DNA of 64,000 bases from Phycisphaerales bacterium. Lineage in GTDB: Bacteria; Planctomycetota; Phycisphaerae; Phycisphaerales; UBA1924. Below, piece by piece: positions 28,813 to 34,171 of the stretch. Each line of letters starts with the position of its first letter. The first letter of the stretch is position 1. The position numbers were made by a program, and so were the translations under genes. The stretch lies in NCBI GenBank assembly GCA_020427395.1, contig JAGQON010000015.1, positions 28,609 through 92,608 of the forward strand. Direction: 5' to 3'. The notes under the pieces were generated by a model that saw nothing but the letters and a program-made list of their open reading frames with translations, was not told where the DNA came from and ran no database searches.

Positions 28813-30243
28813 ATGCCCCAGACTGAAGAATACGTCCAGACCGCCAAAGAGCAGGCTTTCCTCGAGAAGGTCGAGAGCCCCCAGTATCAGCGTGAGATCA
28901 TCAACGGTCTCGCCCCGTTCATCGACGGCAAGGCACCCGAGGACCTCAAGGAGTTCTACAGCTCGCAGGAGCTCGTCCAGCTCGGCGGCCTCAAGGGTGG
29001 CGAGCGGGATGTTGAGAAACGCATGCCGGTCAAGGTGACCCGCCACTACGCCGAACTCGCCCGTAAGAGCAAGCCCATGCAGCGACTCGTCAAGGCCAGC
29101 CCCGACGAGACCCAGGACCTCGCAGGCTCAGAGGACCCGGGCAACCAGATGGACTACTCGCCCGTTGAAGGGCTCCTGCACAAGTACGAGATGGGCCTGA
29201 TGTATGTCGTCTCGACCTGCTCGGCCCACTGTCGCTTCTGCTACCGCGAAGAGCTGATCGCCCGCAAAGAGATCGCCCGCAAGGACGGCACCGTCGCCAA
29301 GAAGGGCCTCGCCAAGATCCCCGAGATCACCGCCTACATCAAGGACTTCAACGCCAAGGTCGCGGCCAACGGCGGCCGTCACCCCGATTCGGGGCGTGAG
29401 AAGCTCCGCGAGATCCTCCTCTCGGGCGGCGACCCGATGGTCCTCAACAACAACAAGATCGCCGCGTGGCTCGCGGCCCTGGCCGAGGTCGGCATCGAAT
29501 CGATCCGCATCGGCACCAAGGAGATGGCGTTCTACCCGAAGCGGTTCGACGAAACCTTCTTCGCGATGCTCGACGCCTTCCACGAGAGCTACCCAGATGT
29601 GGGTGTCCACTTTATGGTGCATTTCGAGCACCCCGACGAGTTCCTCCAGAAGGACGACGACGGCAACTACATCCGCGACCGCCACGGCATCCCCCAGTGG
29701 GTCGAGGATACCGCCGCCGCAATGAACGGGCTGCTCGCCCGCGGCTGGATCACCGTCGAGAACCAGACCCCGATCATCAAGGACATCAACGACGACCCCG
29801 ATGCCCTCCGCCTGATGCAGCGTGAAATGAAGCGCGTTGGTGCTGAGAATCACTACTTCTTCTGCGGGCGTGACATTGTCGCCTATCGAGCCTTCAACAT
29901 CCCCATCGAAAAAGCATGGCAGATCCTCAACGAGTCCCAGAAGGGCCTCTCGGGTGTGGAAGCCCACGCACGCCTCTCGATCACGCACTACAAGGGCAAA
30001 ACCGAGGTCGTGGCTGTCACTGACAAGCCCATCCCCGGGCTGCCCGGTGCCGAGAACGGCGTCGTGATCTTCAAGATTCTGCGAAACGCGGGCAGTGCGC
30101 CTGATCGCTGCAAGGTCTGCATCGTTGGGCGTAACCCCAAGGCAGTGTGGTTCGATGATTACGAGGATCGCGTACTCTTCGATGAAGCCGGGTTGTATGC
30201 CTACACCCGTGTCAAGGACGCCACGACGCTGACCTCGAACTGA
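28813..30243 (+). CDS. KamA-like radical SAM amino acid 2,3-aminomutase, probably acting on a dicarboxylic amino acid
   Basis: A 476-residue radical SAM, PLP enzyme of the lysine 2,3-aminomutase family. The [4Fe-4S] motif is CSAHCRFC (Cys136, Cys140, Cys143), followed by LSGGDPMVLNNNK. Aligned by eye to clostridial lysine 2,3-aminomutase through NQTPIIKDINDD and the IPIEKAW region, the substrate-binding Asp293 of that enzyme corresponds to Arg353 here (FFCGRDIVAY), and Asp330 falls on a non-acidic residue; the PLP Lys337 corresponds to Lys396 (HYKGKTEVV). As I recall, glutamate 2,3-aminomutase also replaces Asp293 by a basic residue. This argues for a substrate with a side-chain carboxylate. 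The following CoA-transferase and aminotransferase genes and the convergent thiolase point to 2-aminoadipate. Not classical lysine 2,3-aminomutase; substrate is inference. Confidence 0.85.
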   Translation: MPQTEEYVQTAKEQAFLEKVESPQYQREIINGLAPFIDGKAPEDLKEFYSSQELVQLGGLKGGERDVEKRMPVKVTRHYAELARKSKPMQRLVKASPDETQDLAGSEDPGNQMDYSPVEGLLHKYEMGLMYVVSTCSAHCRFCYREELIARKEIARKDGTVAKKGLAKIPEITAYIKDFNAKVAANGGRHPDSGREKLREILLSGGDPMVLNNNKIAAWLAALAEVGIESIRIGTKEMAFYPKRFDETFFAMLDAFHESYPDVGVHFMVHFEHPDEFLQKDDDGNYIRDRHGIPQWVEDTAAAMNGLLARGWITVENQTPIIKDINDDPDALRLMQREMKRVGAENHYFFCGRDIVAYRAFNIPIEKAWQILNESQKGLSGVEAHARLSITHYKGKTEVVAVTDKPIPGLPGAENGVVIFKILRNAGSAPDRCKVCIVGRNPKAVWFDDYEDRVLFDEAGLYAYTRVKDATTLTSN

Positions 30244-30260
30244 TTCCGACGAAGGCCGAC

Positions 30261-32965: not shown

Positions 32966-34171
32966 TCAGGCACGCTCAAAGACCGTCGCGAGCCCCTGCC
33001 CGACACCAACACACAGAGACGCGATGCCCTTTCGTGCGTCGCGTCTTTTCATCTCGTGGAGGAGGGTGGTGACGATGCGAGCCCCCGAGCACCCGAGCGG
33101 ATGCCCGATGGCGATCGCGCCGCCGTTAACATTGAGCTTCGACTCATCGAGCCCAAGCTCACGAGCACACGCGACCGATTGGGCCGCGAACGCCTCGTTG
33201 AGTTCGATCAGGTCGATGTCACTCAGCGTCATTTTCGCACGATCGAGCGCCTTACGAATCGCGGGTACCGGCCCGACGCCCATGACCGATGGGTCAACAC
33301 CCGCCGAGGCGCTCGGACCAACGAACGCGAGCGGGGTGAGCCCGAGTGATTTCGCCTTCTCGGCCTCGATAATCAACAGCGCCGCCGCCCCGTCGTTGAC
33401 ACCCGACGAGTTGCCTGCGGTCACGGTGCCCGATTGGTCTTTGGAAAATGCCGGACGGAGCTTGGCGAGCTGCTCCATAGTGGTGTCGGGGCGCGGATGC
33501 TCATCGGTATCCATCACGATCGGATCGCCCTTCCGCTGCGGGATCTCCACAGGGACGATCTCATCATTGAAGAGCCCCTTCGCATGCGCAGCCGCCCATT
33601 TCTGCTGGCTGCTCAATGCGAACGCGTCCTGGTCAGCGCGGGAGATGTTGTGCTGGCGGGCAACATTTTCGGCCGTCTCACCCATCGCATAGGGGTGGTG
33701 CAGTTCTGAGAGCTTGGGATTGATAAACCGCCACCCGATCGAGGTGTCGTAGATCTGCTGCCCGCGGTCGAAGGCACTCTCAGCCTTGCTCACGACCATC
33801 GGCGCCCGGCTCATGGATTCCACGCCTCCGGCAACGAACACATCGCCGTGGCCTGCCTCGATCATGCGGGCTGCGATGTTGATCGCCTCAAGACCTGAGG
33901 CACAAAGCCGGTTCACGGTCGAGCCGGGCACACTCGTTGGCAGCCCGGCAAGCAGTGCCGACATTCGGGCTACATTGCGGTTGTCCTCGCCCGCTTGGTT
34001 CGCGGCCCCCATGTAAACATCGTCAATCAGAGCCGGATCGATGCTGGTGCGATCAACAACGGCACGGATCACAAGTGCGGCCAGATCGTCCGGGCGAACG
34101 AAACTCAGGGCCCCCGCATATCGACCGATCGGGGTTCGCAGGGCACAGACGACAGCGGCTCTTCTTTGCAT
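32966..34171 (-). CDS. pcaF: 3-oxoadipyl-CoA thiolase (PcaF/PaaJ-like acetyl-CoA acyltransferase)
   Basis: A 401-residue thiolase that would cleave 3-oxoadipyl-CoA with CoA to acetyl-CoA and succinyl-CoA. Catalytic Cys90 (NRLCASGLEA), His357 (GHPLGCSGAR) and Cys387 (LCVGVGQG) are present. The blocks GANQAGEDNRNVARMS-like (MGAANQAGEDNRNVARMS), STVNRLCASG, FDRGQQIYDTSIGWRFINP, IPQRKGDPIVMDTDEHPRPDTT and VTAGNSSGVNDGAAAL closely resemble 3-oxoadipyl-CoA thiolases as I remember them, rather than acetoacetyl-CoA thiolases. It is convergent with the aminotransferase gene; their stop codons abut as TGATCA, leaving no intergenic base. Confidence 0.88.
   Translation of the reverse strand: MQRRAAVVCALRTPIGRYAGALSFVRPDDLAALVIRAVVDRTSIDPALIDDVYMGAANQAGEDNRNVARMSALLAGLPTSVPGSTVNRLCASGLEAINIAARMIEAGHGDVFVAGGVESMSRAPMVVSKAESAFDRGQQIYDTSIGWRFINPKLSELHHPYAMGETAENVARQHNISRADQDAFALSSQQKWAAAHAKGLFNDEIVPVEIPQRKGDPIVMDTDEHPRPDTTMEQLAKLRPAFSKDQSGTVTAGNSSGVNDGAAALLIIEAEKAKSLGLTPLAFVGPSASAGVDPSVMGVGPVPAIRKALDRAKMTLSDIDLIELNEAFAAQSVACARELGLDESKLNVNGGAIAIGHPLGCSGARIVTTLLHEMKRRDARKGIASLCVGVGQGLATVFERA

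What the first reader, a model, noticed from the sequence alone, without database searches (positions are those of the whole stretch)
28813..34171. Possible undescribed pathway: 2-aminoadipate degradation by a radical SAM aminomutase, beta-transaminase, 3-oxoadipate CoA-transferase and thiolase
Seen: a KamA-like radical SAM/PLP enzyme, PcaI/PcaJ-like CoA-transferase subunits and a class III aminotransferase are one tight operon (gaps 15-17 bases and an ATGA overlap), and a PcaF-like thiolase is encoded convergently with no intergenic base. Known: 3-oxoadipate CoA-transferase and thiolase turn 3-oxoadipate into acetyl-CoA and succinyl-CoA, normally at the end of aromatic degradation. Inference: no aromatic genes are here. 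An aminomutase would turn 2-aminoadipate (from lysine) into 3-aminoadipate, and the transaminase would give 3-oxoadipate. That joins amino acid degradation to the 3-oxoadipate route without 2-oxoadipate dehydrogenase. I know of no description of such a route. An alternative is glutamate to 3-oxoglutarate.
Basis: partly seen in the sequence, partly recalled or inferred. Interest (0 to 1): 0.93.

Follow-up and report, generated by a model that had tools for sequence, protein, structure and literature searches.

The report
Radical-SAM bridge from lysine to 3-oxoadipate
A gene cluster kept together in many planctomycete bacteria likely breaks down 2-aminoadipate, which would come from lysine, by a predicted shift of its amino group that would feed it into the end of the pathway otherwise used for aromatic compounds.

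The parts
27852..28709 (-). RpiR/MurR-type regulator (HTH_6 + SIS), divergent from the operon; likely its regulator
   Evidence: Pfam HTH_6 52.0 bits and SIS 42.7 bits; found in 41 of 80 related loci
28710..28812 (.). intergenic region with a partly conserved dyad (AAGTG-TC-CACTT here; exact AGTGT-ACACT in 9 of 31 regions compared), possible RpiR operator
   Evidence: 31 intergenic regions compared, the window's included; sequence; function untested
28813..30243 (+). KamA-like radical SAM/PLP aminomutase of an unnamed clade; predicted 2-aminoadipate 2,3-aminomutase. C136/C140/C143 (CxxxCxxC), carboxylate Arg R145, side-chain Arg R353 (at Asp293 of lysine 2,3-aminomutase), S389 (at Asp330), PLP Lys K396; roles by alignment
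30261..30971 (+). 3-oxoacid CoA-transferase subunit A, PcaI type (carries the CSFPR stretch that ScoA/AtoD types lack)
   Evidence: TIGR02429 343.3 bits; tree and alignment with PcaI, ScoA and AtoD-like references
30968..31627 (+). 3-oxoacid CoA-transferase subunit B (ATG start at 30968, ATGA overlap with subunit A)
   Evidence: TIGR02428 293.5 bits, cut-off 243.55; sequence
31643..32965 (+). class III aminotransferase, HemL/beta-transaminase group; predicted 3-aminoadipate (or 3-aminoadipyl-CoA) transaminase
   Evidence: Aminotran_3 184.6 bits; hemL 326.8 bits, under the cut-off 527.3; PDB matches 6k8h, ForI 6ssd, beta-phenylalanine aminotransferase 4ao9, beta-transaminase 2yku
32966..34171 (-). 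thiolase close to PcaF/PaaJ, predicted 3-oxoadipyl-CoA thiolase, with PcaF covering-loop residues T143-G146 and R148
   Evidence: TIGR02430 589.5 bits, cut-off 597; best PDB matches include beta-ketoadipyl-CoA thiolase 6pca; loop motif; tree

Best explanation
[quoted passage not shown] Predicted steps: (1) the radical SAM/PLP aminomutase moves the amino group from C2 to C3, giving 3-aminoadipate; (2) the class III aminotransferase removes it to 2-oxoglutarate, giving 3-oxoadipate; (3) the PcaIJ-type transferase takes CoA from succinyl-CoA, giving 3-oxoadipyl-CoA; [quoted passage not shown] Steps 2 and 3 may run in the other order, with the transaminase acting on 3-aminoadipyl-CoA. Shown: gene set, its conservation, predicted fold, aligned active-site residues, lineage of the enzymes, neighbours in relatives. 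Inferred: every substrate and product. The route would skip 2-oxoadipate dehydrogenase and glutaryl-CoA dehydrogenase and would lose no CO2.
For: Gene set kept together: CoAT_A 80, CoAT_B 77, AT 73, thiolase 54 of 80 loci; CoAT_A in 30 of 31 further loci that I chose from operon-positive genomes (35 fetched, 4 repeat loci of the 80). Acidic substrate: Asp293 of lysine 2,3-aminomutase is replaced by Arg353, ungapped in phmmer, MAFFT and hhalign, in 115 of 115 distinct sequences from 120 loci; Asp330 aligns with Ser389 (115 of 115), while the CxxxCxxC cysteines and R145 (114 of 114) and K396 (115 of 115) are kept. The glutamate-aminomutase-like L111/L112 (570 and 568 bits, cut-off 650) have Lys there, and 11 of 11 lysine-type relatives have both Asp. 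C6 product: CoAT_A groups with PcaI-type transferases and apart from ScoA (3cdk, 3rrl), AtoD-like and ablA-linked ones (support 0.998), and shares a CS[FY]P[RK] stretch with two extra residues that all 6 of those others lack. The thiolase has the PcaF covering loop with R148, as do all 52 operon thiolases read (loop described in PMC7337054, passages read); two non-PcaF thiolases score 376 and 354 on the pcaF model, the window's 589.5. Re-arranged set in G403: KamA divergent from RpiR-CoAT_A-CoAT_B-thiolase-another class III AT, where the thiolase passes the pcaF cut-off (648.3 against 597). Precursor link: in G092 an L-piperidine-6-carboxylate dehydrogenase (736.2 bits, cut-off 730) is convergent with the aminotransferase gene, 216 bases away, and BoxB, of a pathway that also ends in 3-oxoadipyl-CoA (recalled), lies 5.5 kb upstream of KamA; in the sister genome G447 both are on the same contig, the dehydrogenase 1.6 kb off with one ORF between. 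The window's genome encodes that dehydrogenase too (349 aa piece at a contig edge, 512.7 bits) and has no match to the intradiol ring-cleavage dioxygenase family.
Against: No activity is known for any member. The window's genome (91.8% complete) has no saccharopine-dehydrogenase-type match and no lysine 6-transaminase above cut-off, so how it would make piperideine-6-carboxylate is unknown. Piperideine-6-carboxylate dehydrogenase and lysine 6-transaminase are common in relatives without the operon (104 of 121 and 66 of 121), so their presence does not discriminate. The adjacency is seen in one genus only; in two more operon-positive genomes of that genus (G449, G450) the operon contig ends at the aminotransferase and the copy found is on another contig, and G447 has a second copy elsewhere. 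The saccharopine family shows no association (10 of 17 operon-positive against 9 of 20 negative). G403, the re-arranged case, lacks the dehydrogenase and does have an intradiol dioxygenase match (103.3 bits, another contig), so its PcaF could also serve aromatics. In the further loci, mostly from other orders, the thiolase is seldom next to the operon (5 of 31), and in G435 KamA and RpiR stand without the other genes (L282). Other KamA clades in planctomycetes also carry Arg at this position with no partner gene nearby in the loci checked, so Arg353 alone does not fix the substrate. The window's thiolase misses the pcaF cut-off by 7.5 bits, and the covering loop also occurs in a thiolase annotated only as acetyl-CoA C-acyltransferase (L236). 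The place of CoAT_A among the PcaI types is unresolved (supports 0.17-0.63).
Confidence: 0.64

Rival explanations
1. The substrate is glutamate: it would be isomerised to beta-glutamate, transaminated to 3-oxoglutarate, and then either activated and cleaved to malonyl-CoA plus acetyl-CoA, or decarboxylated to acetoacetate and cleaved to two acetyl-CoA.
For: Glutamate 2,3-aminomutase is the known acidic-substrate KamA enzyme (TIGR04368; it hits the window protein at 81.4 bits); a basic residue at the Asp293 position fits glutamate as well as 2-aminoadipate; glutamate needs no upstream genes, which the window's genome partly lacks.
Against: The protein is far below the glutamate 2,3-aminomutase cut-off (81.4 against 650). 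The transferase is PcaI type and not ScoA type, the thiolase lineage points to the C6 3-oxoadipyl-CoA, and a 2-aminoadipate-forming dehydrogenase neighbours the operon in G092.
Confidence: 0.14
2. It is a variant of the Bacillus-type beta-lysine route: lysine to beta-lysine, transamination at C3, CoA transfer and thiolytic cleavage to acetyl-CoA and a 4-aminobutyryl-CoA derivative.
For: Bacillus velezensis has class III aminotransferase, CoA-transferase A and B, peptidase, ablB and ablA in one cluster, the closest architectural precedent.
Against: Both lysine-binding Asp positions are changed; the lysine 2,3-aminomutase model gives 74.0 bits against a cut-off of 525.4; no acetyltransferase or peptidase gene lies in the operon (AblB was not searched for in the genome); the transferase is not of the ablA-linked branch.
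Confidence: 0.05
3. The substrate is another acidic alpha-amino acid such as 2-aminopimelate or diaminopimelate, cleaved to a longer acyl-CoA and acetyl-CoA; the MurR-like regulator would fit a cell-wall-derived amino acid.
For: Arg353 can pair with any distal carboxylate; the regulator is of the RpiR/MurR family.
Against: The 3-oxoadipate lineage of the transferase and thiolase and the neighbouring dehydrogenase in G092 point to C6. Apart from the operon's own frames no neighbour family is in more than 6 of the 80 loci; these were not named by family searches, so cell-wall genes are not formally excluded.
Confidence: 0.1

Closest known systems
Bacillus ablA/ablB cluster (B. velezensis plasmid locus L145; the B. 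subtilis kamA-yodPQRST operon is recalled)
   Same: Radical SAM 2,3-aminomutase, class III aminotransferase and both 3-oxoacid CoA-transferase subunits in one cluster.
   Different: There a lysine 2,3-aminomutase with ablB acetyltransferase and a peptidase; here another aminomutase clade with Arg at the side-chain site, no acetyltransferase or peptidase in the operon, a PcaI-type transferase and a PcaF-like thiolase.
beta-Ketoadipate pathway end (PcaIJ, PcaF; PaaJ and the box pathway for the thiolase)
   Same: CoA-transferase and thiolase close to these lineages; covering loop with R148 kept.
   Different: No intradiol ring-cleavage dioxygenase match in the window's genome; entry by an aminomutase and aminotransferase instead.
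Lysine fermentation variant with Kat (Perret et al. 2011, PMC3149608; outline and section 4, parts 1 and 2 of 3, read)
   Same: A HemL-like class III aminotransferase that makes a 3-oxoacyl compound for a thiolase, in a pathway that starts with a radical SAM aminomutase.
   Different: Kat acts on 3-aminobutyryl-CoA after beta-lysine 5,6-aminomutase and other enzymes; none of those genes are in the operon.
Glutamate 2,3-aminomutase (TIGR04368)
   Same: KamA superfamily; basic residue in place of Asp293 expected for an acidic substrate (recalled for the family).
   Different: 81.4 bits against a cut-off of 650; Arg instead of Lys at the key position.

Membership tests
Lysine 2,3-aminomutase (AblA/KamA) | score above the TIGR03820 cut-off | tested here: not met
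   74.0 against 525.4 bits
Lysine 2,3-aminomutase (AblA/KamA) | Asp293 and Asp330 that bind the lysine side chain (residue roles recalled) | tested here: not met
   Arg353 and Ser389 instead
KamA radical SAM/PLP aminomutase superfamily | CxxxCxxC cluster motif, carboxylate-binding Arg, PLP lysine, aminomutase fold | tested here: met
KamA radical SAM/PLP aminomutase superfamily | score above the TIGR00238 cut-off | tested here: not met
   100.2 against 199.2 bits: a divergent clade
Glutamate 2,3-aminomutase | score above the TIGR04368 cut-off | tested here: not met
   81.4 against 650 bits
3-oxoadipate CoA-transferase PcaIJ | subfamily models TIGR02429/TIGR02428 (they also cover ScoAB) | tested here: met
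   343.3 and 293.5 bits, above both cut-offs
3-oxoadipate CoA-transferase PcaIJ | groups with PcaI apart from ScoA/AtoD types | tested here: met
   subunit A only: split support 0.998 in a tree of 26 sequences and the CSFPR stretch; finer placement unresolved. Subunit B not tested
3-oxoadipate CoA-transferase PcaIJ | activity on 3-oxoadipate | not testable with these tools
   needs an assay
3-oxoadipyl-CoA thiolase PcaF | score above the TIGR02430 cut-off | tested here: not met
   589.5 against 597; the thiolase of the re-arranged cluster in G403 passes with 648.3
3-oxoadipyl-CoA thiolase PcaF | long covering loop with T143-G146 and R148 | tested here: met
   same numbering in the window thiolase; G-W-R in place in 52 of 52 operon thiolases read; not exclusive to PcaF, since L236 has it too
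Glutamate-1-semialdehyde aminomutase HemL | score above the TIGR00713 cut-off | tested here: not met
   326.8 against 527.3
Kat (3-aminobutyryl-CoA aminotransferase) | acts on CoA esters only | not testable with these tools
   no Kat sequence was compared
Bacillus kamA/yod-type operon | acetyltransferase AblB and peptidase in the operon | tested here: not met
   operon of four genes with no room for others; the rest of the genome was not searched for AblB

The most novel reading that the evidence does not exclude
A new enzyme class, L-2-aminoadipate 2,3-aminomutase, founds a widespread planctomycete pathway in which lysine is burnt through 3-aminoadipate and 3-oxoadipate, so that amino acid breakdown and aromatic breakdown share their last two steps.
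Probability: 0.6. Interest if true: 0.86.

Novelty: new variant of a known kind. Interest (0 to 1): 0.76.

Why it matters
If true, it adds a lysine degradation route without 2-oxoadipate decarboxylation, glutaryl-CoA dehydrogenase or cadaverine, a new substrate for radical SAM aminomutases, and a biological role for 3-aminoadipate; in the paper library five names of this compound turned up in one paper, on a meteorite (listing). It would also mean that pcaIJ/pcaF-type genes in a genome need not signal aromatic degradation, which matters for annotation of uncultured planctomycetes. The aminomutase could be a tool for making 3-aminoadipate.

Tried and rejected
Saccharopine dehydrogenase as a partner: PF16653 in 10 of 17 operon-positive and 9 of 20 operon-negative genomes, no association. 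Lysine 6-transaminase as a partner: over the cut-off in 8 of 17 against 1 of 20 and in 7 of 10 operon-positive against 41 of 284 other genomes of the phylum sample, which looked strong, but in the order of G092 it is 26 of 33 against 66 of 121, and within family f36 18 of 21 against 45 of 60, so I treat it as lineage background. Piperideine-6-carboxylate dehydrogenase: 16 of 17 against 12 of 20 (one negative with a 36% match not counted), but 31 of 33 against 104 of 121 in the order of G092 (three matches at 35-38% identity not counted): background too, except for its place beside the operon in G092. It was not found in the 80 genome-contig loci (one 29% match in L093). Clustering of genes around lysine 6-transaminase and saccharopine-type genes showed no shared pathway genes that I recognised, and no ortholog of the dehydrogenase there. 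A Tistrella CoA-transferase beside a DUF1338 gene suggested the 2-oxoadipate dioxygenase HglS, but that protein is far below the HglS cut-offs (30.1 against 600 and 19.5 against 550). Other planctomycete KamA-like genes of several clades were checked for the partner genes: no match above 45 bits in 18 of the 19 loci of that kind fetched, and one 43% thiolase piece 6.5 kb away in L126. No extra gene recurs widely next to the operon. My first tree of CoAT_A was rooted by midpoint, which misplaced supports, and held no ScoA; on re-reading the unrooted supports I withdrew 'nested inside PcaI' and made a second tree with two ScoA chains. Paper searches: searches returned no paper; two searches gave listings without such a pathway. 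Searches used the words '2 3-aminomutase', which probably cannot match the printed comma form, so they say little. Searches were listings for background. The library is open-licence only, so absence there is weak.
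Full report
Observation. Most record titles of its relatives say Phycisphaerales, Phycisphaerae, Phycisphaeraceae or Planctomycetota.

Conservation. A scan with an alignment of 16 relatives found 343 genomic relatives and kept the best 80. 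Of these 80 loci, 80 have CoAT_A, 77 CoAT_B, 73 the aminotransferase, 54 a matching thiolase and 41 the regulator; L082 and L097 have the thiolase about 5 kb from the aminotransferase, and several absences are contig ends. The clade is patchy: 10 of 294 genomes of a phylum sample at E below 1e-200, 9 of 160 of a class sample, 33 of 154 of the order of G092. I fetched 35 further loci from operon-positive genomes; four repeat loci of the 80. Of the 31 new ones, 30 have CoAT_A and 5 have a thiolase; one (L282, genome G435) has KamA and the regulator alone.

CoA-transferase and thiolase. The nearest plasmid relatives of subunit A are 60-69% identical; those annotated pcaI are 60.7%. In a tree of 26 sequences (FastTree) the operon's subunit A groups with transferases whose neighbour is pcaF and apart from ScoA (3cdk 50.5%, 3rrl 46.3% identical), AtoD-like and ablA-linked ones, with support 0.998; a CS[FY]P[RK] stretch with two extra residues is in all PcaI-type and operon rows and in none of those six. 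The finer placement is unresolved. The thiolase is 62% identical to a PaaJ and scores 589.5 on pcaF (cut-off 597), where two other thiolases score 376 and 354 and another operon thiolase 575. Operon thiolases form their own branch (0.995) next to the PcaF/PaaJ/box group (0.92, which includes L236, annotated acetyl-CoA C-acyltransferase), apart from two acetyl-CoA acetyltransferases (0.954). PcaF's covering loop, which contacts the acyl tail through T143-G146 and R148 (PMC7337054, passages from one find), is present with the same numbering. Of 52 operon thiolases (the 54 loci minus two cut by contig ends) a strict pattern matched 38, and the other 14, printed, all have G-W-R in the same place.

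Re-arranged set in G403. Here KamA is divergent from RpiR, CoAT_A, CoAT_B, thiolase and a different HemL-like class III aminotransferase (33% identical) in one run. The thiolase passes the pcaF cut-off (648.3 against 597). The same functions with an exchanged aminotransferase and a PcaF by NCBI's own standard are the strongest single pointer to 3-oxoadipyl-CoA. Two facts cut the other way: G403 is the one operon-positive genome of 17 without the piperideine-6-carboxylate dehydrogenase, and it has an intradiol dioxygenase match on another contig.

Link to 2-aminoadipate. The nearest plasmid relative of CoAT_A (Tistrella, 68.9%) lies 3.5 kb from an L-piperidine-6-carboxylate dehydrogenase (797.8 bits, cut-off 730), the enzyme that makes 2-aminoadipate. 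In G092 that dehydrogenase (736.2 bits) is convergent with the aminotransferase gene, 216 bases away, and a BoxB gene (749.2 bits, cut-off 499.1) is 5.5 kb upstream of KamA. In its sister G447 both are on the operon's contig, the dehydrogenase 1.6 kb off with one ORF between, and a second copy exists elsewhere; in G449 and G450 the operon contig ends first and the copy found is elsewhere. Orthologs (54% identity or more) exist in 16 of 17 operon-positive genomes, including the window's own as a piece at a contig edge, and in 12 of 20 negatives; in the order of G092 in 31 of 33 and 104 of 121. So presence is background; adjacency is the signal, in one genus. Lysine 6-transaminase is likewise background. 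The window's genome shows neither it above cut-off nor a saccharopine-type dehydrogenase, so its source of piperideine-6-carboxylate is open.

Mechanism. [quoted passage not shown] A HemL-like transaminase that needs the CoA ester is known (Kat, PMC3149608, section 4 parts 1-2 read), so steps two and three could be swapped here. All substrates are inferred.

Known or new. The Bacillus velezensis cluster with ablA, ablB, peptidase, CoA-transferase and class III aminotransferase is the precedent for the design. What differs is the aminomutase clade, the acidic pocket, the PcaI/PcaF lineages and the absence of ablB and the peptidase from the operon. No paper in the library held both 'aminomutase' and '3-aminoadipate', and five names of that compound gave one paper, on a meteorite (listing only). 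I rate it a new variant of a known kind.

Noticed in passing
window 28710-28812 and 30 related intergenic regions: A recurring arrangement of GTTACA-like motifs around an AGTGT-ACACT-like dyad between the divergent RpiR and KamA genes, a candidate operator (the exact dyad in 9 of 31 regions).
   Followed up: partly
L258 6118-6798, L262 around 7613-8233, L260 around 5828-6445: In three operon-positive genomes of one family (G427, G409, G374) a second CoA-transferase B-type gene (51-55% identical) lies next to the piperideine-6-carboxylate dehydrogenase gene.
   Followed up: partly
L056 16963-20638: Downstream of one operon without thiolase are genes that look like ACMSD, kynureninase and kynurenine monooxygenase (named from recall of the sequences), another possible source of C6 amino dicarboxylates.
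   Followed up: no
L011-L020, L023 and L021, L022, L027, L029: Two further uncharacterised KamA clades of planctomycetes (about 370-435 and 455-490 aa) share the Arg at the Asp293 position; those whose surroundings were fetched have none of the partner genes nearby.
   Followed up: partly
L282 8830-11196: In genome G435 the aminomutase and its regulator stand without the other operon genes.
   Followed up: partly
window 23239-27756 and 35279-40614: The operon's neighbours in the window look unrelated by their sequences (histidine kinase, two response regulators, a TIM-barrel isomerase-like protein, two Gfo/Idh-type oxidoreductases, an ApbE-like protein; names from recall).
   Followed up: no
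   Followed up: partly
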